Shown here: positions 1 through 14,684 of the stretch, piece after piece
How positions within the stretch are numbered: the first letter of the stretch is position 1
Layout of the letters: each line of letters starts with the position of its first letter
Assembly (NCBI RefSeq): GCF_016650815.1
Contig: NZ_JAEKEZ010000030.1
Span: 7,501 to 71,500, forward strand
Length of the DNA stretch: 64,000 nt
Reading direction: 5' to 3'
DNA from: Pseudomonas sp. TH31
Lineage (GTDB): Bacteria; Pseudomonadota; Gammaproteobacteria; Pseudomonadales; Pseudomonadaceae
Notes under the pieces: generated by a model
The model's database searches: none
The model's input: the letters and a program-made list of their open reading frames with translations, nothing else
Told to the model about the DNA's origin: nothing
Translations under genes and position numbers: made by a program

Positions 1-909
1 CCAGGGTGATTTCGGTCTGCATGTCAGCCAGTTTTTTCTGGATCAACTGAGTGGCCGCCAATGGGCGACCGAACTGCTGACGATCCAGGGTGTACTGGCG
101 GGCGGTGTGCCAGCAGAACTCGGCGGCGCCCAGTGCCCCCAGGAGATGCCATAACGCGCGGAGTTGAGACAGGTAAAAGGGCCTTTCAGGCCACGGACAT
201 CCGGGAAGATGTTCTCTTCAGGAACAAACACGTTGTCCATGACGATCTCGCCAGTGATGGACGCACGCAGGCCGACCTTGCCGTGAATCGCCGGAGCACT
301 CAGGCCTTTCCAACCCTTCTCCAGCACGAAGCCACGAATGTCGCCGGCATCATCCTTGCCCCAGACCACGAACACATCGGCGATCGGGCTGTTGGTAATC
401 CACATCTTGCTGCCGGTCAGGCTGTAGCCGCCTTCCACTTTGCGTGCACGAGTAATCATCGCGCCAGGGTCGGAACCATGGTTCGGCTCTGTCAGACCGA
501 AGCATCCGATCCATTCACCCGAAGCGAGTTTCGGCAGGTACTTCTGCTTTTGCGCCTCAGTGCCGAATTCATTGATCGGCACCATGACCAGCGAGGACTG
601 CACGCTCATCATCGAGCGATAGCCAGAGTCAACGCGCTCGACTTCACGGGCGATCAGGCCATAGCTGACGTAGTTCAGGCCGCTGCCTCCGTACTCCTCC
701 GGAATGGTCGCGCCCAACAGGCCCACTTCGCCCATCTCGCGGAAGATCGCCGTGTCGGTCTTTTCATGGCGGAAAGCTTCAAGCACACGTGGCGCGAGCT
801 TCTGCTGAGCGAATTGCTCGGCGGTGTCGCGGATCATGCGTTCTTCTTCGGTGAGCTGTTGATCCAGCAGCAGGGGATCGATCCAGTTGAAGCTAGCTTT
901 ACCGCCCAT
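1..909 (-). CDS. gcdH: glutaryl-CoA dehydrogenase, 3' end off the window, one frameshift
   Basis: FAD acyl-CoA dehydrogenase that oxidatively decarboxylates glutaryl-CoA to crotonyl-CoA in lysine/glutarate catabolism (family knowledge). The N-terminal domain, the [13 protein letters not shown] stretch and the [16 protein letters not shown] core are visible. Reading breaks after ARYGISWG: at 136-140 there is a run of five C (G on the coding strand) where six restore the frame, after which [20 protein letters not shown] continues to the window edge. About 303 of an expected 390-odd codons are present. The start at 909 gives [12 protein letters not shown], the usual N-terminus in pseudomonads. 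It diverges from a LysR gene, a pairing seen for gcdH and its regulator. A one-base homopolymer loss is most likely a sequencing error. Confidence 0.93.
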
Positions 910-3861: not shown

Positions 3862-5312
3862 TGAGCATGAACCTTGTCACGACGCTCTACTTGATCGCGT
3901 CGATCTGCTTCATCCAGGCCCTCAAAGGCCTGTCGCACCCGACCACGTCCCGACGCGGCAACGTGTACGGCATGCTCGGCATGGGGCTGGCGATCCTCAC
4001 TACCGTGGGCCTCATCTATAAGCTGGGCGCGCTCTCTTTTGGACAAGGCGGGGCCACTGCCGGCATCGGCTACGTCATCGTCGGCCTGTTGGTCGGCGGC
4101 ACCGCCGGTTCGATCATGGCCAAGCGCGTTGAAATGACCAAGATGCCGGAACTGGTTGCCTTCATGCACAGCATGATCGGTATGGCAGCGGTGTTCATTG
4201 CCATCGCTGCTGTCGTTGAGCCGCAATCGCTGGGTATCGTCAAGCAGCTGGGCGACTCGATTCCTGCCGGTAACCGCCTGGAGCTGTTCCTTGGCGCCGC
4301 CATCGGTGCAATCACCTTCTCCGGTTCGGTGATCGCCTTCGGCAAGCTGTCGGGCAAGTACAAGTTCCGCCTGTTCCAGGGCGCGCCCGTACAGTTCGGC
4401 GGCCAGCACAAGCTGAACCTGCTGCTGGGCCTGGCGACACTGGCCCTCGGCATCACCTTCATGCTGACCGGCAACCTTAACGCCTTCGCGCTGATGCTGG
4501 CCCTGGCCTTCGTGCTGGGCGTGTTGATCATCATCCCGATTGGCGGCGCAGACATGCCGGTGGTTGTGTCGATGCTCAACAGCTACTCCGGCTGGGCAGC
4601 GGCGGGTATCGGCTTCTCGCTGAACAACTCGATGCTGATCATTGCCGGCTCGCTGGTGGGCTCAAGCGGTGCGATCCTCTCGTACATCATGTGCAAGGCG
4701 ATGAACCGTTCCTTCTTTAATGTGCTGCTCGGCGGTTTCGGCAACACGACGGATGCAGCCGGCCCGGCTGGTTCGAAAGAAGCCCGCCCGGTGAAATCCG
4801 GCTCGGCTGACGACGCGACTTTCCTGCTGACTAACGCCGACACCGTGATCATCGTTCCGGGCTACGGCCTGGCGGTTGCGCGGGCGCAACACGCGCTGAA
4901 AGAGCTGACCGAGAAGCTGACCCATCGCGGCGTGACCGTGAAGTACGCGATCCACCCGGTTGCCGGTCGGATGCCTGGGCACATGAACGTATTGCTGGCC
5001 GAGGCCGAAGTGCCTTACGACCAAGTGTTCGAGATGGAGGACATCAACTCCGAGTTTGGTCAAGCCGATGTGGTGCTGGTATTGGGCGCCAACGACGTGG
5101 TGAACCCGGCCGCCAAGAACGATCCGAAATCGCCGATTGCCGGCATGCCGATTCTCGAAGCGTTCAAAGCCAAGACCATCATCGTCAACAAGCGCTCAAT
5201 GGCCAGCGGCTATGCCGGCCTGGACAACGAACTGTTCTACCTCGACAAAACCATGATGGTCTTCGGCGACGCCAAGAAGGTTATCGAGGACATGGTTAAA
5301 GCCGTCGAGTAA
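3861..5312 (+). CDS. pntB: NAD(P) transhydrogenase subunit beta
   Basis: 483-residue beta subunit: about nine transmembrane helices in the N-terminal ~270 residues (domain II), then the NADP(H)-binding domain III with VIIVPGYGLAVARAQHALKEL and the downstream HPVAGRMPGHMNVLLAEA and VLVLGANDVVNPAA motifs. Uses the proton-motive force to drive NADPH formation. The start ATG overlaps the pntAB stop by one base. Followed directly by a strong rho-independent terminator, so the operon ends here. Confidence 0.97.
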   Translation: MSMNLVTTLYLIASICFIQALKGLSHPTTSRRGNVYGMLGMGLAILTTVGLIYKLGALSFGQGGATAGIGYVIVGLLVGGTAGSIMAKRVEMTKMPELVAFMHSMIGMAAVFIAIAAVVEPQSLGIVKQLGDSIPAGNRLELFLGAAIGAITFSGSVIAFGKLSGKYKFRLFQGAPVQFGGQHKLNLLLGLATLALGITFMLTGNLNAFALMLALAFVLGVLIIIPIGGADMPVVVSMLNSYSGWAAAGIGFSLNNSMLIIAGSLVGSSGAILSYIMCKAMNRSFFNVLLGGFGNTTDAAGPAGSKEARPVKSGSADDATFLLTNADTVIIVPGYGLAVARAQHALKELTEKLTHRGVTVKYAIHPVAGRMPGHMNVLLAEAEVPYDQVFEMEDINSEFGQADVVLVLGANDVVNPAAKNDPKSPIAGMPILEAFKAKTIIVNKRSMASGYAGLDNELFYLDKTMMVFGDAKKVIEDMVKAVE

Positions 5313-5334
5313 AACCTGCGCCAGCGCAATACCC

Positions 5335-5368
5335 AAAACCTCAGCCTTTAGTAGGCTGGGGTTTTTTT
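5335..5368 (+). terminator. rho-independent terminator after pntB
   Basis: Hairpin AACCTCAGCC / GGCTGGGGTT (one G-T pair) with loop TTTAGTA, followed by a run of T. It lies about 25 bp past the pntB stop. Confidence 0.9.
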
Positions 5369-5491
5369 ATTCCCCGTGAAACCCGACCAAAGGCTCTAAA
5401 TCAGGGCTCGGCATTCGACCATGGTAGCGGGACGGATTTTTTCAAATCACTAGACTGCGTACCTTGCTTCCGTTGCCCGAGATAATAATCC

Positions 5492-6985
5492 ATGTACCGT
5501 GATCGTATTCGCTTGCCTTCGTTGTTGGATAAGGTAATGAGCGCCGCTGACGCTGCCGCTCTGATTGAGGACGGCATGACCGTCGGCATGAGCGGTTTCA
5601 CCCGCGCCGGCGAAGCCAAGGCTGTGCCGCACGCACTGGCCGAGCGCGCCAAAATCACTCCGCTGAAAATCACCTTGATGACCGGCGCCAGCCTGGGCAA
5701 CGACCTCGATAAGCAGTTGACCGAAGCCGGCGTCCTGTCGCGGCGCATGCCGTTCCAGGTCGACAGCACCCTGCGCAAGGCGATCAACGCCGGCGAAGTC
5801 ATGTTCATCGACCAGCATCTCTCGGAAACCGTGGAGCTGCTGCGCAACCAGCAACTCAAGCTGCCAGACATCGCGGTGATTGAAGCCGTGGCGATCACCG
5901 AGCAGGGTCACATCGTGCCGACCACGTCGGTGGGTAACTCGGCCAGCTTCGCGATTTTCGCCAAGCACGTCATCGTCGAGATCAACATGGCGCACAACCC
6001 GAATCTCGAGGGTTTGCACGACATCTATATCCCGACCTACCGCCCGACCCGCACGCCAATTCCACTGGTGAAGGTCGACGACCGCATTGGCAGTACGGCC
6101 ATCCCGATCCCGCCGGAAAAGATCGTCGCGATCGTGATCACCAATCAATCCGACTCGCCGTCCACTGTACTGCCGCCGGACGCCGACACCCAGGCCATCG
6201 CCGATCACCTGATCGACTTCTTCAAGCAGGAAGTAGCCGCCGGACGCATGACCAACAAGCTTGGCCCGTTGCAGGCCGGGATCGGCACCATCGCCAACTC
6301 GGTGATGTGTGGCCTGATCGACTCGCCGTTTGAAGACCTGACGATGTATTCGGAAGTGCTGCAGGACTCGACGTTCGACCTGATTGATGCCGGCAAGCTG
6401 AGCTTTGCCTCGGGCAGCTCAATCACCTTGTCCGCCCGGCGCAATGCCGATGTGTTCGGCAACCTGGAGCATTACAAGGACAAACTGGTACTGCGCCCCC
6501 AGGAAATCTCCAACCACCCGGAAGTGGTTCGGCGTCTGGGCATCATCGCCATCAACACGGCGCTGGAGTTCGACCTGTACGGCAACGTCAACTCCACCCA
6601 CGTCTGTGGTACGCGGATGATGAACGGCATCGGCGGTTCGGGTGACTTCGCGCGCAACGCCCATCTGTCGATCTTTGTCACCAAATCGATCGCCAAGGGC
6701 GGCGCGATTTCCAGTGTGGTGCCGATGGTCAGCCATGTGGACCACACCGAACATGACGTCGACATCCTGGTGACCGAAATCGGTCTGGCCGACCTGCGCG
6801 GCCTCGCGCCTCGCGAGCGGGCTCGGGTGGTTATCGACAACTGTGTTCACCCGGACTATCGCGAAGCCTTGAATGACTACTTCACCGCCGCCTGCGCGCT
6901 CGGTGGGCACACCCCGCACATCCTGCGCGATGCCCTGAGCTGGCACATTAACCTGGAAGAAACCGGGCGGATGCTGGTGGTCTGA
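5492..6985 (+). CDS. acetyl-CoA hydrolase / succinate:acetate CoA-transferase family protein
   Basis: 497-residue class I CoA-transferase of the acetyl-CoA hydrolase/succinyl-CoA transferase family (AarC/ScpC-like). The N-terminal half carries the MTVGMSGFTRAGEAKAVP glycine motif and the C-terminal half the catalytic-glutamate segment MYSEVLQDS near residue 292, plus FDLYGNVNSTHVCGTRMMNGIGG. Such enzymes move CoA between succinyl-CoA and acetate, or hydrolyse acyl-CoA, in acetate handling. The start ATG at 5492 follows CGAGATAATAATCC. It is a monocistronic gene after the pnt terminator. Transferase versus hydrolase activity cannot be settled from the sequence. Confidence 0.92.
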   Translation: MYRDRIRLPSLLDKVMSAADAAALIEDGMTVGMSGFTRAGEAKAVPHALAERAKITPLKITLMTGASLGNDLDKQLTEAGVLSRRMPFQVDSTLRKAINAGEVMFIDQHLSETVELLRNQQLKLPDIAVIEAVAITEQGHIVPTTSVGNSASFAIFAKHVIVEINMAHNPNLEGLHDIYIPTYRPTRTPIPLVKVDDRIGSTAIPIPPEKIVAIVITNQSDSPSTVLPPDADTQAIADHLIDFFKQEVAAGRMTNKLGPLQAGIGTIANSVMCGLIDSPFEDLTMYSEVLQDSTFDLIDAGKLSFASGSSITLSARRNADVFGNLEHYKDKLVLRPQEISNHPEVVRRLGIIAINTALEFDLYGNVNSTHVCGTRMMNGIGGSGDFARNAHLSIFVTKSIAKGGAISSVVPMVSHVDHTEHDVDILVTEIGLADLRGLAPRERARVVIDNCVHPDYREALNDYFTAACALGGHTPHILRDALSWHINLEETGRMLVV

Positions 6986-7001
6986 TTGACGTAAAACACA
7001 G

Positions 7002-7025
7002 CTGACGCAAACACAGTTGCGTCAG
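7002..7025. other. perfect stem-loop downstream of the acetyl-CoA hydrolase gene
   Basis: CTGACGCAA and TTGCGTCAG form a perfect 9-bp stem with a 6-base loop, 17 bp after the stop codon. There is no good T tract, so it may be a weak terminator or an mRNA 3'-end stabiliser. Confidence 0.5.
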
Positions 7026-7055
7026 TTGGTTGTTGCAACACCCGATCCTGTCTAA

Positions 7056-7222
7056 AACTGTACTTCTGTACTGGTCTTTTCCTACCGTAATCTCCTACAT
7101 TTTCGAATCAACTTGCCTTATTTGCACCTGTTTGGTGCCGATAGGTACAGTTGCTTCAATTTCGACCAGTACACCCCCTATAAACAGTTAATTGATCCCT
7201 CACAATACAAGTGAACTGTATC
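7056..7222. promoter_or_regulatory. cluster of TGTAC-type half-sites ahead of the DUF1127 gene
   Basis: CTGTACT occurs twice in direct repeat (about 7058-7073), the second within TGTACTGGTC; its exact inverse GACCAGTACA lies at about 7164-7173. AACTGTAC (about 7056) is likewise inverted as GTACAGTT (about 7145). A related AACTGTATCT is at about 7214. The spacing of nearly 100 bp between inverted copies suggests an operator array for a dimeric regulator, possibly of the MocR/GntR type, but the regulator is not encoded nearby. Confidence 0.45.
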
Positions 7223-7304
7223 TAGAGGGACTGGCCAAACAGGAGGATCATTGGCATCAGTTAAACCACTACCTAATCCCGCCACAAGCGGAAGGATGTC
7301 AACC

Positions 7305-7520
7305 ATGGAACGTACACTCAGTTCCGAGCTGTTCTTCGAAGACAATGCTGCAAAAACCCAGGCTTCGATGCCTCTTCGCGTTATCGCCAACCTGATGTTG
7401 TGGCAGCGCCGCATTACCAGCCGCCATCAACTGGCTCGTCTGGATTCGCGTCTGCTGGCTGATGCCGGGATTAGCGAAGCACAACGCTACGAAGAGCTGA
7501 GCAAGCCGTTCTGGCGCTAA
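7305..7520 (+). CDS. DUF1127 domain small protein
   Basis: 71-residue basic protein. The C-terminal half RRITSRHQLARLDSRLLADAG followed by ISEAQRYEELSKPFW is the DUF1127 signature (helix rich in Arg and Leu, then LxDxGI). The ATG at 7305 is chosen over the ATG at 7296 because AAGGA at 7292-7296 sits eight bases ahead. DUF1127 proteins elsewhere influence RNA turnover and phosphate/carbon metabolism, but the function here is unknown. It is preceded by a cluster of repeated half-sites and followed by a strong terminator, so it is a separately controlled single gene. Confidence 0.85.
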   Translation: MERTLSSELFFEDNAAKTQASMPLRVIANLMLWQRRITSRHQLARLDSRLLADAGISEAQRYEELSKPFWR

Positions 7521-7579
7521 GTTAGCGTCGCTGGCTCTGACCTGTAGGGTCCACCGCCAGCAACCCGAATTGAACAAAC

Positions 7580-7616
7580 AAAACCCGTCGTGGGAAACCA
7601 CGGCGGGTTTTGTCGT
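7580..7616 (+). terminator. rho-independent terminator after the DUF1127 gene
   Basis: AAAACCCGTCGTGG and CCACGGCGGGTTTT form a 14-bp stem around GAAA, ending in TTTTGTCGTTT. Confidence 0.88.
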
Positions 7617-7681
7617 TTCAGGAGCCATAAACATCACACCGATACAGTTTGTTTAAATCCAATGTAGGACGGTACACTTTT

Positions 7682-7725
7682 GCAGGAGCTGCCGAACGCG
7701 GCCCGAGCCTTCGGCAGCTCCTACG
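7682..7725. repeat. REP-type palindrome (class A, compact)
   Basis: GCAGGAGCTGCCGAA faces TTCGGCAGCTCCTAC with a short GC-rich centre. It is a shorter version of the class A elements at 10.9, 35.1, 44.8 and 53.8 kb. Confidence 0.8.
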
Positions 7726-7868
7726 TATCGTTTCATCTGTATGGGCTGTTCGAATCCATCCGCGTCAGCCTAATATCCGATCAGAACGTGGCGAACGCCG
7801 CATGACAGGCGTCTGATCTTCCAGACACTGCGCCACCTCTCAATCGGTTTATCCAAAGGAGCTTCCCC

Positions 7869-8186
7869 ATGTCCCGTCTTCGCCTGCTGAGCGCTGCAGC
7901 CCTGCTCGCCGTAGCTGCCAATGCCCACGCCTCCAGCTTTATCGTGACCACCGACGCCGTTGTTGGTGCTCTAAAATCCAGCTCCGACGCGACCTCCAAT
8001 CTCTCTTCTTCGCTGCGCGACAACAAAATTGTGCGTGCAGCCCGTGATGACGCCGCCAGCTTTGTCGCCAGCAACGGCGACATTCGTGGCGTGAAACTGG
8101 AAAGTGCATTTGACGAAATCCATCGTCAAGCGCCTCAGCTGAACGCTACTGACGCACAACTTGCCCAGGCCATCCTGGCGATCTAA
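7869..8186 (+). CDS. DUF2388 secreted protein, copy 1
   Basis: 105 residues with a Sec signal peptide (cleavage after AHA near residue 20), then the DUF2388 core: IVRAARDDAASFVASNGDIRG and KLESAF, ending AQAILAI. It starts 8 bases after an AAAGGAG ribosome site. This is the first of three consecutive paralogues that lead into the large metallopeptidase/DUF4105 gene. Function of the family is unknown; a periplasmic location is inferred from the signal peptide. Confidence 0.85.
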   Translation: MSRLRLLSAAALLAVAANAHASSFIVTTDAVVGALKSSSDATSNLSSSLRDNKIVRAARDDAASFVASNGDIRGVKLESAFDEIHRQAPQLNATDAQLAQAILAI

Positions 8187-8293
8187 ACGTCGGTGCTGCA
8201 AGGGGACACGTCCATCGTGTCCCAATGTTTCGGCGCTGGCTCTAGCCCGGGCATTGCGCTAGCCTTGGGGCTCGCTTTCAGCTATCGAGTCTC

Positions 8294-8611
8294 ATGCGTT
8301 TTCTTTCAAGCCTGTTGTCCATTGCGTTGCTTCTTCTCGCCTGCTGGTCTGGCGCTGCCCAGGCCTTCGACGCCTTCAACCTGTCTACACAAGGCACCGT
8401 GGTCAGTGGTTACGCCACAAGCATGGTGACCTCCGCGCCCTTCGACCATAAACTGCTGATCGCCGCTCAGGATGACGCTGCGGCTTTCATTGCCAGTGAC
8501 GGCCAACTGCGAGGAGCGCAACTGGAATCCGCCCTGGTTTACCTGCGCCGGACCCAGCCAAAACTTCATGCCAGCGACCTTGAACTGGCACAAGCAATTC
8601 TCGTCCAATAG
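8294..8611 (+). CDS. DUF2388 secreted protein, copy 2
   Basis: 105 residues: signal peptide to about residue 24 (ending AAQA), then a diverged DUF2388 core with LIAAQDDAAAFIASDGQLRG, QLESALVYL and AQAILVQ. The N-terminal half of the mature part differs most from copies 1 and 3, while the DDAA-F-AS-G-RG-LE block is kept. No strong ribosome site is visible upstream. It lies 107 bp after copy 1 and 27 bp before copy 3, so the three are probably co-transcribed. Confidence 0.83.
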   Translation: MRFLSSLLSIALLLLACWSGAAQAFDAFNLSTQGTVVSGYATSMVTSAPFDHKLLIAAQDDAAAFIASDGQLRGAQLESALVYLRRTQPKLHASDLELAQAILVQ

Positions 8612-8638
8612 TTATCATCGTTCCCCCGGAGTCGTTCC

Positions 8639-8959
8639 ATGCGTAGCCCGCTGATTGCTGCCACCCTTGGCTTGCTGTTGTTGGCCGACGTGGCCCAGGC
8701 ACACACCCTGGTAGCCACCAGTAACATGATCATTCGTGCCACCCAGCGCACGCTTGATTTCACTTCTGATACCACCACGTCCATCCGTGATTCGAAAATC
8801 GTGCGCGAAGCCCACGACGATGCGGCCAGTTTCGTCGCCAGCGATGGCGATATTCGCGGCGCGCATCTGGAAGAGGCCTTCAATACCCTGCGCACCCGCG
8901 TACCTGAAGCCCGCGACGCCAGTGATCAGGTCCTCGCCGAAGCCATCCTCGCGCTGTGA
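8639..8959 (+). CDS. DUF2388 secreted protein, copy 3
   Basis: 106 residues: signal peptide ending AQAHT near residue 22, then IVREAHDDAASFVASDGDIRG, HLEEAFNTL and AEAILAL. Closest to copy 1. A CCCCGGAGTC ribosome site precedes the ATG. The stop overlaps the GTG start of the following 653-residue gene, which argues for translational coupling of the DUF2388 series with that enzyme. Confidence 0.85.
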   Translation: MRSPLIAATLGLLLLADVAQAHTLVATSNMIIRATQRTLDFTSDTTTSIRDSKIVREAHDDAASFVASDGDIRGAHLEEAFNTLRTRVPEARDASDQVLAEAILAL

Positions 8960-10917
8960 GGTCGCTCAGCGCCTGGCTGCTGGCCGGGATGGTGTTGCTG
9001 CTTGGCAACACCGCACAGGCCAGCTTGCAATTACGGCTCAAGACCGACGGTCTGAGCCCCGCGCAAGTGCAGGCCAGCCAAGCGCTGCTCGATGAAGCCA
9101 TGCAGGCATTGCCGCCGCGCTTCGTCGAGCAACTGGATCGGCGCATCGATGTCGGCTGGACCGACGAGATGCCCGACAACGCCTACGGCGAGGCGTCGCT
9201 GGTGTCCGAGCTCGATCTGAATCGCAATCTGCTGGACAGCCTCACCGACGGCAGCGCCGCGACGAAAAAGACCTACCGCCCACACGGCACGGTACGCCGG
9301 GAAATGCTCGCTACGGTCTTGCACGAACTCACCCATATTTACGACCGCGCGCGCCTGTGGCCATCTGCCCAGCGCACGCTGATCCAGCGTTGCAGCCAGC
9401 GTAATAGCAGCTCCGGGCTGGTCGGCCTCCCCGATCAATGCCGCGGCCAGACGGCGCGACGTTTTACCCTCAGTGACGACCCGCGCCTGCTGGATCTGGC
9501 CGGCTGGCCGCAATACGTCGGCCGACGTGGCGAACGCGAGCAGCACAACCGGCAAATCGTTCGCAGCCCGGATATCTACGAGACGACCAATCCCAAGGAA
9601 TTCGTGGCGGTCAACATGGAGTATTTCCTCCTGGACCCGAGCTATGCCTGCCGCCGTCCTGCGCTTTACCGCTACTACAAAGAACATTTCGGCTGGGCGC
9701 CGGCCGCCAAAGACACCTGCGCCAAATCCTTCGCCTTCCTCAATGCCGGTAACGACTTCGCCAAGACACCATTGGGCCAGGTCGACCCGGAACGGGTTTA
9801 TGCGGTGGACTATCTGCTGGCCGAGGCCAACCAGAACTGGGTCAGCCGGTGGGGCCACAGTATGTTGCGCCTGGTGATCTGCGCGCCGGGCCGACCACGC
9901 GGACCGGATTGCCGGCTGGACCTGGATCAGCACCTGGTGCTGTCCTACCGCGCCTTCGTCGGTGACGTACAGTTGTCGAGCTGGGATGGACTGGTGGGTA
10001 AATATCCGTCACGCCTGTTTGTCTTGCCCCTGGCTCAAGTGATCGACGAATACACCAAGACCGAACTTCGCAGCCTGGCTTCGGTGCCGCTGAATCTCTC
10101 TCGCACCGAAATCGAAGAAGTGGTGGAACACGCCGCAGAGATGCACTGGAGCTACGACGGCAACTACTTCTTCCTGTCCAATAATTGCGCGGTTGAAAGC
10201 CTGAAGCTGCTGCGCAGCGGCAGCAACAACGCGCAACTGACCGGACTGGACAGCATCATGCCCAACGGTTTGCTGGAAGTGCTCAAGGGTCGCGGGCTGG
10301 CAGACACCAGCGTGCTGGACGATCCCCGCGAAGCCTTGCGTCTGGGATATCGCTTCGACTCCTTCCGCGATCGCTATCAAGCCATGTTCGAAGTGCTGAA
10401 GAAGCACTTGCCGATCAAGCAGACCACTGTCGAAGACTGGCTGGCATTGAGCGCCGAAGAACGCCGGCAATGGATCGATCAGGCCGATTTGCGCACCAGC
10501 GCGGCACTGCTGTTGTTGGAACAGGCCAGTTTCCGTCGGCAGCTACAGTTGGCCCAGGACGAAGTGAAGCAGCGCTACTTGGGCGCTCGAGAACTGAAGA
10601 ACGGCGGCATGGACAAGGCCAACGCGACCTTGCAGCAGATTCTCGCCAACAGCGGCTTCCTCAGCCGTCCCGCCGAATTGCTCGGCACCGGTGGTTATGG
10701 TTTGCCACAGCCGAGCGAGTCGGCGCGCCTGGAATCGGAAAGCAGCCTGCGCCAGAAACAACTGCAATCGCTGACCGGGGATCTGGATAAAGAAGTGAGA
10801 GCGCTGCTGGAACCGAGCCGGGCGGCGGAGATAGCAGCCAATGAAGCCAATCTTAAACAGGTTGGCGAACATTTGAGGGCATTGCACAAGGCCGCGGGTG
10901 GGTTGGAGCTGCCCTGA
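8956..10917 (+). CDS. exported two-part protein: HExxH metallopeptidase-like region plus DUF4105 (Lnb-like) domain
   Basis: 653 residues with a signal peptide (to about residue 22, ending AQA). Residues 123-127 are HELTH, and residues 213-222 (PKEFVAVNME) resemble the third-ligand helix of gluzincin-type metallopeptidases such as MtfA. Residues ~290-420 match DUF4105, the family that includes the enterococcal lipoprotein N-acyltransferase Lnb: WGHSMLRL with His301 and SNNCAVESLKLL with Cys411. A helical C-terminal region of about 200 residues follows. The GTG start overlaps the preceding DUF2388 stop. The domains suggest an envelope hydrolase or acyl-transfer enzyme; no substrate can be assigned. 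Confidence 0.75.
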   Translation: MRSLSAWLLAGMVLLLGNTAQASLQLRLKTDGLSPAQVQASQALLDEAMQALPPRFVEQLDRRIDVGWTDEMPDNAYGEASLVSELDLNRNLLDSLTDGSAATKKTYRPHGTVRREMLATVLHELTHIYDRARLWPSAQRTLIQRCSQRNSSSGLVGLPDQCRGQTARRFTLSDDPRLLDLAGWPQYVGRRGEREQHNRQIVRSPDIYETTNPKEFVAVNMEYFLLDPSYACRRPALYRYYKEHFGWAPAAKDTCAKSFAFLNAGNDFAKTPLGQVDPERVYAVDYLLAEANQNWVSRWGHSMLRLVICAPGRPRGPDCRLDLDQHLVLSYRAFVGDVQLSSWDGLVGKYPSRLFVLPLAQVIDEYTKTELRSLASVPLNLSRTEIEEVVEHAAEMHWSYDGNYFFLSNNCAVESLKLLRSGSNNAQLTGLDSIMPNGLLEVLKGRGLADTSVLDDPREALRLGYRFDSFRDRYQAMFEVLKKHLPIKQTTVEDWLALSAEERRQWIDQADLRTSAALLLLEQASFRRQLQLAQDEVKQRYLGARELKNGGMDKANATLQQILANSGFLSRPAELLGTGGYGLPQPSESARLESESSLRQKQLQSLTGDLDKEVRALLEPSRAAEIAANEANLKQVGEHLRALHKAAGGLELP

Positions 10918-10925
10918 CAGAAATG

Positions 10926-11001
10926 CAAAGATCGCAGCCTTCGGCAGCTCCTACGGGGTACACAATCCCATGTAGGAGCTGCCGAAGGCTGCGATCTTTG
11001 A
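10926..11001. repeat. REPIN, class A
   Basis: Two inverted arms: AAAGATCGCAGCCTTCGGCA... and its reverse complement ending ...GGCTGCGATCTTT, separated by 17 bases. Sits between convergent genes. Confidence 0.9.
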
Positions 11002-11036
11002 GGCACAGCGCGCAATGCGCTGTGCCGATGCAGTCC

Positions 11037-11495
11037 TTAATTCAACACGTTATCCAGAATTTCATAAACAATCCCGGTTCCTACGGCGATCAGCACAATG
11101 TCGCCACCCGCCCGGCGCCATTCGTAACCCTCGTATTGCGGCAACCGACCCAGCGCACGCTGATCCAGGCGTTCGCCGTAATAACCGTGAGGCAACGGCC
11201 GGCCACGTTCCAGACGGATGCCTGACGGTGGCGGCGCACCGCGCACGAAGTATCCGTGATTGTCGTGAATGGTCTGACGCACCGGGCCAAAATCATGTGG
11301 AGGAGGACCGCCGCGATGGTTGTCCTGCGGGCCACGGTGATCATTGCCACGGTTGTCACCATGGTTATCGTATTGGCCCTGCTCCGGGCCGCCGTGGTCG
11401 TGATCGTCGCGCTGATCGGCGCTGGCGTGCAGCAACGGGGTCGCACTCAGCATCAGTACGCCCAGGCTGGCTATCAACCGTTTCGGCATTTTCAT
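11037..11495 (-). CDS. RcnB/CigR-like small exported protein
   Basis: About 152 residues: signal peptide to about residue 24 (LLHASA), a His/Asp/Gly-rich low-complexity middle (HDHGGPEQGQ..., NHRGGPPPHDFGP), then the C-terminal RcnB-type segment (GRPLPHGYYGERLDQRALGRLP) and a terminal hydrophobic stretch IVLIAVGTGIVYEILD. The ATG at 11495 follows GAGGAAACCCCCG; a longer in-frame start five codons upstream lacks spacing for that site. RcnB/CigR proteins are periplasmic or inner-membrane and linked to metal or virulence control elsewhere; the role here is unknown. Confidence 0.75.
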   Translation of the reverse strand: MKMPKRLIASLGVLMLSATPLLHASADQRDDHDHGGPEQGQYDNHGDNRGNDHRGPQDNHRGGPPPHDFGPVRQTIHDNHGYFVRGAPPPSGIRLERGRPLPHGYYGERLDQRALGRLPQYEGYEWRRAGGDIVLIAVGTGIVYEILDNVLN

Positions 11496-11521
11496 CGGGG
11501 GTTTCCTCACTGCACCTACAG

Positions 11522-11554
11522 CAAAAAGGGCTTCAGAACGTAGTCCTGAAACCC
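11522..11554 (-). terminator. rho-independent terminator of trpBA
   Basis: Read on the minus strand: GGGTTTCAG, loop GACTACGTT, CTGAAGCCC, then TTTTTG. It lies 60-95 bp past the trpA stop and also within the leader of the RcnB-like gene. Confidence 0.75.
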
Positions 11555-11616
11555 TCGGTCTTACTGTTTAGTCTGTGTTGCGAGGCGCTAATTCCTTTGT
11601 ATCAGGAACTTTACTT

Positions 11617-12428
11617 TCAGTTGACCCGTGCTTGGCGCACGCCGTCGGCCAACGCTGCACAAAGGCTCAATACACCGTCGATTGCCTGATCCGGCGTCGA
11701 CGCATTCGCGATGTGATCGATCAATGCCGAACCCACCACGACGCCGTCCGCCAGACGAGCGATAGCCGCCGCTTGCTCCGGTGTACGGATACCGAAACCG
11801 ATGCTGATCGGCAGGTCGGTGTGACGACGCAAACGAGCAACCGCTTCTTCGACGTGTTCCAGCGTTGCCGCACCCGCGCCCGTCACACCTGCCACCGACA
11901 CGTAGTAAACGAAGCCGGAGCTGCCGTTCAGAACGGTCGGCAGGCGCACATCGTCGGTGGTCGGCGTGGTCAGACGAATGAAGTCCAGACCCGCAGCCTG
12001 AGCCGGGTCGCACAGTTCGCCGTTATGTTCCGGCGGCAGGTCGACCACGATCAGACCGTCAACGCCGGCCTCTTTAGCGTCCGCGATGAAGCGCGGCACG
12101 CCATACATGTGGATCGGGTTGAAGTAACCCATCAACACCAACGGCGTCTCGGTGTTGCCTTCACGGAACTCGCGAACCATTTGCAGGGTTTTCGCCAGAT
12201 TCTGTTTGGCACCCAAAGCGCGGATGTTCGCCAGTTGGATCGCCGGGCCGTCGGCCATCGGGTCGGTGAAGGGCATGCCCAATTCGATCACGTCGGCGCC
12301 AGCACCCGGCAAGCCTTTGAGGATCGCCAGCGAGGTGTCATAGCTCGGGTCGCCAGCGGTGACGAAGGTCACCAGAGCGGCGCGATTCTGTTCCTTGAGT
12401 TCGGCAAAACGCGTTTGCAGGCGGCTCA

Positions 12429-12429
<1 letters not shown>
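11617..12429 (-). CDS. trpA: tryptophan synthase alpha subunit
   Basis: 270 residues, the normal length. Cleaves indole-3-glycerol phosphate to indole and glyceraldehyde 3-phosphate. Catalytic residues fall at the canonical positions: Glu49 in DVIELGMPF and Asp60 in DPMADGP; the phosphate-binding [11 protein letters not shown] and GVVVGSALI loops are present. The ATG at 12429 shares one base with the trpB stop (TGATG), so the two subunits are translationally coupled. Longer in-frame starts run back into trpB and are rejected. Confidence 0.97.
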
Positions 12430-13721
<1,292 letters not shown>

Positions 13722-13766
13722 CTACCCCTGACGTTCCGACCTGAAAACCGATAAGATCGCCACAAC

Positions 13767-13785
13767 CTGTCAGGAAAATTCACAG
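13767..13785. promoter_or_regulatory. candidate TrpI operator in the trpB-trpI gap
   Basis: CTGT...ACAG dyad (CTGTCAGG...TTCACAG, 19 bases) just ahead of trpI and upstream of where the trpB promoter should lie. The location fits a LysR activator site, but the symmetry is short and it overlaps the trpI leader. Confidence 0.35.
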
Positions 13786-13790
13786 ATCAC

Positions 13791-14684
13791 ATGAGCCACG
13801 ACCTCCCGCCGTTGAACGCCCTTCGGGCCTTCGAAGCTACTGCCCGTCTGAACAGCGTCAGTCAGGCTGCCGAACAGCTGCACGTCACCCATGGTGCGGT
13901 CAGCCGGCAACTCAAGGTGCTCGAAGAACATCTCGGCGTGAGTCTGTTCGTCAAGGACGGACGTGGCCTTAAACTCACAGATGCCGGCGTTCGTTTGCGC
14001 GATGCCAGCAGCGACGCGTTTGAGCGATTGCGCACCGTCTGTGCCGAATTGACCCAAAGCACCGCCGACGCGCCCTTCGTGCTTGGCTGCTCCGGCAGCT
14101 TGCTCGCGCGCTGGTTCATTCCGCGCCTTGGTCGCTTGAATGCGGATCTGCCGGACTTGCGCCTGCACCTGTCAGCCGGAGAAGGCGATCTCGACCCACG
14201 GCGCCCTGGACTGGACGCTTTGCTGGTATTCGCCGAGCCGCCCTGGCCGGCGGACATGCAAGTCTATGAACTGGCCAGCGAACGCATCGGCCCGGTCATG
14301 AGCCCACGCTTCGCCGGCTACGAACGGCTGCAACAGGCTCCGGCCAGCGCGCTGTTGAGCGAGCCGCTGTTGCACACCACATCGCGTCCTCAGGCGTGGC
14401 CGAGCTGGGCACAGCAAAGCGGCCTCGACGCCAGGGCGTTGAAGTTGGGGCAGGGTTTCGAACATTTGTATTATTTGCTGGAAGCAGCGGTGGCGGGGTT
14501 GGGTGTAGCGATTGCCCCCGAGCCGCTGGTGGCCGAGGACTTGAAGGCCGGCCGCCTGGTTGCGCCGTGGGGTTTCTGTGAGACCCCGGCGCAACTGGCG
14601 TTGTGGCTACCCAAGCGTGCCGCGGACGGCCGCGCTCGGCAGTTGGCTCAGTGGCTCAAGAACGAGCTGCGCCAAGCGGATTAA
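13791..14684 (+). CDS. trpI: LysR-family activator of trpBA
   Basis: 297 residues. N-terminal helix-turn-helix (residues ~20-63, [19 protein letters not shown] and the wing [12 protein letters not shown]) and a GcvA/TrpI-type effector domain. Divergently placed next to trpB, which in Pseudomonas identifies TrpI, the activator that responds to indole-3-glycerol phosphate. Its stop codon overlaps the stop of the convergent DUF883 gene by three bases. Confidence 0.92.

What the first reader, a model, noticed from the sequence alone, without database searches (positions are those of the whole stretch)
7869..10917. Triple DUF2388 series coupled to a metallopeptidase/Lnb-like enzyme
Three small secreted DUF2388 proteins in tandem share a DDAA-F-AS-G-RG-LE core, and the third overlaps the start of a 653-residue exported protein. 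The coupling suggests that the small proteins are partners, substrates or inhibitors of that enzyme. Neither family has a described role in pseudomonads that I know of, so this is a candidate undescribed envelope system.
Basis: partly seen in the sequence, partly recalled or inferred. Interest (0 to 1): 0.6.

Follow-up and report, generated by a model that had tools for sequence, protein, structure and literature searches.

The report
Exported two-domain enzyme with dedicated partners
Pseudomonas carries several small secreted helical proteins beside one exported enzyme that joins a protease-like part to a lipid-transferase-like part; the two are found together or missing together, and a similar pairing recurs in very distant bacteria, which points to one undescribed cell-envelope system whose chemistry is still unknown.

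Summary
In detail: three DUF2388 genes (7869-8186, 8294-8611, 8639-8959) run into a 653-codon exported enzyme (8956-10917), DUF7844 (MtfA/M90-like HExxH) plus Lnb_N (NlpC/P60-type His/Cys); the last two genes overlap by GTGA. In 59 genomes of the window's family both families occur in the same 50 and are missing from the same 9; the enzyme is single-copy, DUF2388 has 1-8 copies. In 76 of 76 gammaproteobacterial loci DUF2388 lies directly upstream. In 276 genomes of the class DUF2388 was seen only with the enzyme. A Pfam-missed small relative sits beside the enzyme in another gammaproteobacterium, and a probably related small secreted family accompanies it in Bdellovibrionota. Both putative active sites are invariant in 11 enzymes. 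The small proteins combine a Ser/Thr-rich leader with a helical core. Best reading: they are the enzyme's dedicated clients, docked by the core and modified at the leader or at a conserved Lys. Contact and chemistry are not shown; structure prediction gave no evidence of a complex.

The parts
7869..8186 (+). DUF2388 protein 1 (105 aa); leader from about 7932 (cleavage site by eye), boundary Lys53 codon 8025-8027
   Evidence: PF09498 E 2e-28, TIGR02448 E 5e-34; sequence read
8294..8611 (+). DUF2388 protein 2 (105 aa); leader from about 8366, boundary Lys53 codon 8450-8452
   Evidence: PF09498 E 2e-29; sequence read
8639..8959 (+). DUF2388 protein 3 (106 aa), the enzyme-adjacent copy; leader from about 8702, boundary Lys53 codon 8795-8797
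   Evidence: PF09498 E 3e-30; its leader type (TLVATSN...) is that of most enzyme-adjacent copies printed
8956..8959 (+). GTGA overlap: enzyme start GTG and stop TGA of DUF2388 protein 3
   Evidence: sequence
8956..10917 (+). Exported enzyme, DUF7844 (residues 25-253) + Lnb_N (270-436) + helical C-terminal part, 653 aa
   Evidence: Pfam; AF2 of the L142 orthologue
9322..9336 (+). HELTH (H123 E124 H127), zinc-peptidase motif
   Evidence: H123, E124, H127 and D130 invariant in 11 enzymes from Gammaproteobacteria and Bdellovibrionota (positions)
9598..9621 (+). E215 ... E222 region, candidate third zinc ligand
   Evidence: both Glu invariant in the 11; the ligand role is inferred from gluzincins
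9856..9858 (+). His301 of the Lnb_N domain
   Evidence: invariant in the 11; catalytic role inferred from the permuted NlpC/P60 family
10186..10188 (+). Cys411 of the Lnb_N domain
   Evidence: invariant in the 11; catalytic role inferred
10926..11000 (.). Perfect 29-nt inverted repeat just after the enzyme stop, possibly the end of the unit

Best explanation
A periplasmic two-domain enzyme (an MtfA/M90-like zinc peptidase domain joined to an Lnb-like permuted NlpC/P60 thiol acyltransferase or amidase domain) works on its own set of small secreted proteins. The DUF2388 core is the docking domain that the enzyme recognises; the roughly 22-32 residue Ser/Thr-rich leader, or the Lys at the leader/core boundary, is the part presented to an active site and cut and/or acylated. 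The tandem and scattered DUF2388 paralogues are then alternative clients of one enzyme. SHOWN: the genes, the domain matches, the invariance of both putative active sites, the phylogenetic and positional coupling, the shared leader-plus-core build. INFERRED: that the two proteins touch, that the small ones are clients rather than regulators, and that the chemistry is cleavage and/or acyl transfer.
For: Joint presence or absence in 59 of 59 family genomes: 50 with both, 9 with neither. Joint absence occurs within genera whose other sampled members keep both: g5 (G045), g10 (G048), g18 (G018 and G044). Enzyme single-copy in all 50, DUF2388 1-8 copies; of the 150 DUF2388 places listed (the list was cut) 100 lie in arrays directly upstream of the enzyme and 50 elsewhere in the same genomes. 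Seven genomes have a single DUF2388; in six (G004, G021, G034, G035, G053, G054) it is the enzyme-adjacent one, so the minimal unit is one small protein plus the enzyme. One genome of the Bacteriovorax class has 17 matches to the small family. One enzyme with many paralogous small proteins fits clients or adaptors better than inhibitors. Invariant H123/E124/H127 and H301/C411 suggest that both sites work. Ser+Thr is 0.356 in the leader against 0.079 in the core (298 of 309 sequences; 11 did not fit the boundary pattern and were dropped) and 0.345 against 0.109 in 10 of the 17 distant proteins, chosen and cut by hand. AF2 gives a very low-confidence (disordered-looking) leader in the fusion and a helical core. 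A K-x7/8-D-[AVSCLM]-x-x-[FYLV]-type motif at the leader/core boundary is found in 255 of 309 DUF2388, 14 of 17 distant small proteins and 1 of 2098 background ORFs (the pattern was written after seeing both sets). Lnb_N is the domain of the Bacteroides lipoprotein N-acyltransferase (PMC12994826 passages), and solved permuted NlpC/P60 enzymes have hydrophobic, lipid-type pockets (PMC3142127 passages).
Against: No interface evidence: AF2 of a single-chain DUF2388-enzyme fusion gave DUF2388-core pLDDT 71-80, pTM 0.74 and no contact read-out, and the core alone reached 81-92. The boundary Lys is not universal (7 of 309 DUF2388 lack it; Gln at that place in the G067 small protein). In the Bacteriovorax class 33 of 51 genomes with a strong enzyme match had no detectable small protein, and only 8 of 30 enzyme loci there have one within 1.5 kb. 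Co-occurrence counts are not phylogenetically independent. No processing or acylation of a DUF2388 protein was reported in the passages seen.
Confidence: 0.43

Rival explanations
1. The small proteins are not substrates but cofactors, chaperones or targeting subunits of the enzyme (like a colipase or a lipase-specific foldase); paralogues direct it to different targets.
For: Immediate adjacency and overlap with the enzyme gene; conserved compact helical core; one enzyme with several small proteins also fits adaptors; minimal unit of one each.
Against: Up to 17 matches in one genome is many for a cofactor; the Ser/Thr-rich leader is kept in composition though not in sequence, as expected for a modified segment.
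Confidence: 0.3
2. The small proteins are inhibitors or prodomain-like safety catches for a dangerous envelope protease or lipid enzyme.
For: Gene just before the enzyme with GTGA overlap; no genome with DUF2388 but no enzyme was seen.
Against: Dispersed extra copies (50 of 150 listed) and large expansions are unusual for an inhibitor of a single-copy enzyme; the small gene lies downstream of the enzyme in L135 and L104.
Confidence: 0.13
3. The genes are only co-regulated or neighbouring genes with no direct relation.
For: No physical contact shown here; 33 of 51 enzyme genomes in the Bacteriovorax class have no detected small protein.
Against: Identical presence/absence in 59 genomes, scattered copies that are still seen only in genomes with the enzyme, and the pairing recurring in Bdellovibrionota with different gene order.
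Confidence: 0.1
4. The enzyme is an antibacterial effector and DUF2388 its immunity protein; the Lnb_N (DUF4105) clade is sister to the Salmonella toxin domain Tox-Act1.
For: Sister clade relation reported (PMC12994826 passages).
Against: Signal-peptide-like start, single-copy and present in 50 of 59 family genomes; no secretion-system genes recognised by me among the ORFs of 4000-14500.
Confidence: 0.04

Closest known systems
Lnb, lipoprotein N-acyltransferase of Bacteroides (PF13387 Lnb_N / DUF4105)
   Same: Lnb_N domain over cut-off; His before Cys, both invariant
   Different: Fused to an MtfA-like peptidase domain; no hydrophobic segment after residue 30; its gene partners mostly have no Cys in the last 84 residues (283 of 301 without), so they are not ordinary lipoproteins
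MtfA / Peptidase_M90 and other zincins (lethal-factor and PPEP type)
   Same: HExxH and downstream Glu; profile A7 finds PDB entries 9srw (Mlc titration factor A, E 3e-9) and 3dl1 (putative metal-dependent hydrolase, E 7e-9); structural alignments to PPEP and lethal-factor domains with Z about 7
   Different: Exported; below the Pfam M90 cut-off (21 against 26.2); DUF7844 is its own family
LnsA/LnsB of Staphylococcus aureus
   Same: Two-part lipoprotein N-acylation machine with an NlpC/P60 protein and a protein of remote protease-family homology (PMC7387801, abstract and passages)
   Different: There two separate genes, and LnsB is a membrane CPBP-type protein diverged from the family's catalytic motifs; here one protein with the motifs of both domains intact and small helical partners
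DUF2388 / TIGR02448
   Same: The three small proteins are members
   Different: No function found in the papers searched; here linked to an enzyme and to a wider small family that Pfam does not detect (no Pfam family for the G067 small protein)

Membership tests
DUF2388 (PF09498) | Profile match over gathering score | tested here: met
   98.6, 101.8 and 104.4 bits against 25
Lnb-type lipoprotein N-acyltransferase | Lnb_N domain | tested here: met
   97.4 bits against 22.2
Lnb-type lipoprotein N-acyltransferase | Conserved His before Cys (permuted order) | tested here: met
   H301 and C411 invariant in 11 enzymes
Lnb-type lipoprotein N-acyltransferase | Membrane part (recalled; the Pfam name speaks only of an N-terminal periplasmic domain) | tested here: not met
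   best hydropathy after residue 30 is 0.99 over 19 residues
Lnb-type lipoprotein N-acyltransferase | Acts on lipoproteins with an N-terminal Cys | tested here: inconclusive
   18 of 301 distinct DUF2388 have a Cys in the last 84 residues and 23 of 301 a lipobox-like motif upstream; the true substrates are unknown
Lnb-type lipoprotein N-acyltransferase | N-acyl transfer activity | not testable with these tools
   needs biochemistry
Permuted NlpC/P60 fold | Fold similar to solved members | tested here: inconclusive
   3kw0_C (BcPPNE) Z 7.0, rmsd 3.9, 134 aligned of 197, model 371..559, within the range the tool calls common; Foldseek itself had no match below E 0.001
Peptidase_M90 / MtfA | HExxH plus downstream Glu | tested here: met
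   H123 E124 H127, E215 and E222 invariant in 11
Peptidase_M90 / MtfA | Pfam M90 gathering score | tested here: not met
   21 against 26.2 bits
LnsAB-type N-acylation system | NlpC/P60-type component | tested here: met
   Lnb_N domain, counted in the NlpC/P60 superfamily by PMC12994826
LnsAB-type N-acylation system | CPBP-type integral membrane component | tested here: not met
   none of the four proteins of the unit has a CPBP match or a hydrophobic segment after the leader; a distant gene was not sought

The most novel reading that the evidence does not exclude
A private protease-acyltransferase pathway: the exported enzyme trims DUF2388-type clients and attaches a fatty acyl chain (at the new N-terminus, the boundary Lys or leader Ser/Thr), making a class of lipid-anchored envelope proteins outside the Cys-lipoprotein pathway, present in Gammaproteobacteria and Bdellovibrionota.
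Probability: 0.17. Interest if true: 0.9.

Novelty: new variant of a known kind. Interest (0 to 1): 0.64.

Why it matters
Two families of unknown function that 50 of 59 sampled genomes of the family carry become one testable system, with a defined enzyme, defined candidate clients and a single decisive experiment (intact mass of the small proteins with and without the enzyme). If the client model is right it adds a protein-modification route in the envelope that uses an Lnb-type thiol domain on proteins that are mostly not Cys-lipoproteins. The link to Bdellovibrionota suggests an old system, not a pseudomonad oddity.

Tried and rejected
Promoters: AlgU, sigma-70, RpoN, RpoS and Fur-like patterns upstream of the first DUF2388 in 76 loci; only a loosened AlgU-like pattern exceeded shuffles (11 of 76 against 1.6 expected; the strict one 0 of 76), not pursued. 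The window scan gave 1 promoter-like site against 1.9 expected.

P. aeruginosa PA3785/PA3786 as orthologues (my recall): wrong. PA3785 is annotated as a PCu(A)C copper chaperone (PMC9431628 passage) and PA3786 is a 390-bp gene (PMC4665194 passages). PA0039, a secreted protein with a disulfide (PMC5594050 and PMC7368034 passages), was not shown to be DUF2388. All dropped.

DUF2388 fold: Foldseek against PDB, best E 2.9. Sequence search in PDB with the small-protein profile: one designed repeat protein (E 1e-7, no stretch passing on its own) and hits of E 0.3 or worse.

Weak sides of the link between DUF2388 and the distant small proteins. An HMM of DUF2388 (pseudomonad plus f12 sequences) does not find the G067, L135 or L104 proteins. 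With all filters off, the G067 protein is reached by 6 and 9 of 1000 shuffles with two models; L135 by 934 and 237, L104 by 828 and 230. Pairwise, G067 scores above all 500 shuffles against L135 and window protein 1, but 45 of 500 reach it for window protein 3 and 5 of 500 for L069; L135 against the three DUF2388 tried is reached by 20, 35 and 171 of 500; L104 by 1, 8 and 269 of 500. The link rests on the Bdellovibrionota HMM finding G067 (E 3e-6), on the excess of DUF2388 in that HMM's tail (16 of 23 distinct ORFs) and on hhalign (P 0.0012, probability only 19%; 40% with G067 added).

Plasmids: only partial matches (16-42% of the enzyme) in 7 records. Acylation of the boundary Lys as a general rule is weakened by Gln at that place in the G067 protein.
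Full report
OBSERVATION. The window holds three tandem DUF2388 genes and, overlapping the third by GTGA, a 653-codon gene for a protein with a signal-peptide-like start and DUF7844 and Lnb_N domains. Upstream lie a DUF1127 gene and, further off, an acetyl-CoA hydrolase-like ORF; downstream an RcnB-like gene on the other strand and trpA/trpB (the hydrolase and trp names are my reading of the translations). A perfect 29-nt inverted repeat follows the enzyme stop.

COUPLING IN THE FAMILY. The window's genome has five DUF2388 genes (three here, two elsewhere) and one DUF7844 gene. Of 59 genomes of its family (unnamed; Pseudomonadaceae by inference from the named loci), all at least 90% complete, 50 have DUF7844 and 50 have DUF2388, the same 50; nine lack both. 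If the nine absences fell independently the chance of identity would be 8e-11, but genomes are related; more telling, joint absence is seen in genera g5, g10 and g18 whose other sampled members keep both. The enzyme is single-copy in all 50; DUF2388 numbers 1 to 8. From the rows listed (150 DUF2388 places; the list was cut), 49 of 50 enzymes have a same-strand DUF2388 upstream (gap between the two profile matches 75-429 nt), 100 of the 150 listed DUF2388 are in such arrays and 50 are elsewhere; the exception, G025, has only a partial enzyme match and its one DUF2388 on another contig.

BEYOND THE FAMILY. In 276 genomes of the class (G000 and G015 of the family among them) DUF2388 occurs in 5 and DUF7844 over cut-off in 6; the five are among the six, and in the three from family f12 one DUF2388 lies directly upstream of the enzyme. 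The sixth, G067, has a 103-aa secreted-looking ORF directly upstream (L072:491-802) that Pfam does not recognise. In 397 genomes of the phylum DUF7844 passes its cut-off in 27; DUF2388 was not searched there. Of the 80, 76 are gammaproteobacterial (mostly Pseudomonas and Stutzerimonas; one Lysobacter), and in all 76 a DUF2388 stop lies 351-539 nt before the HExxH codon (363 in the window), in arrays of three (50), two (15), one (10) or four (1). The other 4 are from Bdellovibrionota.

BDELLOVIBRIONOTA. The enzymes there have the same two Pfam domains over cut-off in the three scanned (L104, L105, P0005; L106 not scanned). Downstream of the enzyme in L135 and L104 lie small secreted-looking ORFs; none was evident beside it in L105 and L106. 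Searching the four source genomes with the L135 one found tandem paralogues elsewhere in G701 and G702 and two separate ones in G700; in G699 only a match of E 0.09. An HMM from six of these, first 20 residues trimmed, finds the G067 protein at E 3e-6 among 7192 ORFs and further ORFs beside enzymes; after iteration, 8 of the 30 enzyme loci hold such an ORF, on either strand. In that HMM's tail (E 0.8-10) 16 of 23 distinct ORFs are DUF2388 (hypergeometric 7e-17, sequences not independent), and hhalign aligns the two families over 55 columns (P 0.0012 for one comparison, probability 19%). The direct tests in the other direction were mostly negative (see Tried and rejected). I take homology of the small families as likely, not proven. 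In 129 genomes of the class of G702 (the source of L135), 19 have the small family at E 0.01 or better; 18 have it below 0.001, and all 18 are among the 51 with an enzyme match of E 1e-20 or better (Fisher 6e-9, relatedness ignored); all 11 genomes with an enzyme match of E 2e-80 or better have it; 33 of the 51 have none detected. G706 has 17 matches. The search profile was made partly from copies found beside enzymes, which favours the association.

ANATOMY. In 11 enzymes from both groups H123, E124, H127, D130, E215, E222, H301 and C411 are invariant. A profile search of PDB sequences finds MtfA (9srw) and 3dl1. Structural alignment puts model residues 110-338 on zinc peptidases (best Z 8.1; PPEP and lethal-factor domains about 7) and 371-559 on the permuted NlpC/P60 protein 3kw0 (Z 7.0); such Z values can be chance, and Foldseek alone had nothing below E 0.001. 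DUF2388: of 309 sequences 302 have the boundary Lys and 293 the Asp two places before it, followed by the DA..F.AS.G..RG..LEAA block, R, D and LA.AIL. Ser+Thr makes up 36% of the leader and 8% of the core (298 of 309); ten distant small proteins show 35% and 11%. AF2 gives a leader of pLDDT under 50 in the fusion and a helical core; in the lone model the leader is a low-confidence helix.

MECHANISM. The coupling, one enzyme with many small proteins, kept active sites and the leader-plus-core build make dedicated clients the best reading (0.43). Cofactor or adaptor (0.30), inhibitor (0.13), mere neighbours (0.10) and toxin/immunity (0.04) remain. The chemistry is inferred from families: Lnb_N is the domain of the Bacteroides lipoprotein N-acyltransferase (PMC12994826, passages; the primary Lnb paper was not read); of the solved permuted NlpC/P60 enzymes YiiX was modelled with a fatty acid and BcPPNE with a lysine in the active site, and both were proposed to cut lipid-amino acid amides (PMC3142127, passages); S. 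aureus lipoprotein N-acylation needs an NlpC/P60 protein plus a CPBP-type one (PMC7387801, abstract and passages). Since 283 of 301 DUF2388 have no Cys in their last 84 residues, ordinary lipoprotein chemistry on them is unlikely.

PRIOR WORK. Full-text searches for DUF2388, DUF4105, Pfam/TIGR accessions and names listed no paper that by title, abstract or passages seen links the two families or gives DUF2388 a role; the library lacks most subscription papers and preprints. One DUF2388 gene of P. putida (PP_3743) was about 5-fold up in an alr mutant (PMC6034422, passage).

Noticed in passing
L007 (G000:C28:69145-72441): A second Lnb_N gene of the same genome (DUF7843-Lnb_N) lies in two overlapping frames (240 and 250 aa): frameshift or assembly error.
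   Followed up: partly
7684-7722 and 10926-11000: Inverted repeats sharing the core AGGAGCTGCCGAA flank the DUF2388-enzyme unit, REP-like (the name is my reading).
   Followed up: no
L181 (Pseudomonas mangrovi), ORFs ending near 2490, 3062, 3468, 3845, 6231 and 6697: DUF2388 copies on both sides of the enzyme.
   Followed up: no
G706: Seventeen matches to the small secreted family in one genome of the Bacteriovorax class, several close together on C1.
   Followed up: no
L133: A record named Pantoea sp. Ap-967 carries a Pseudomonas-type locus; possibly misnamed.
   Followed up: no
7251-7520: A DUF1127 gene upstream; the 8-mer TTCTGGCG at its end recurs upstream of the array in 39 of 76 loci, so this neighbour may be conserved.
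   Followed up: no
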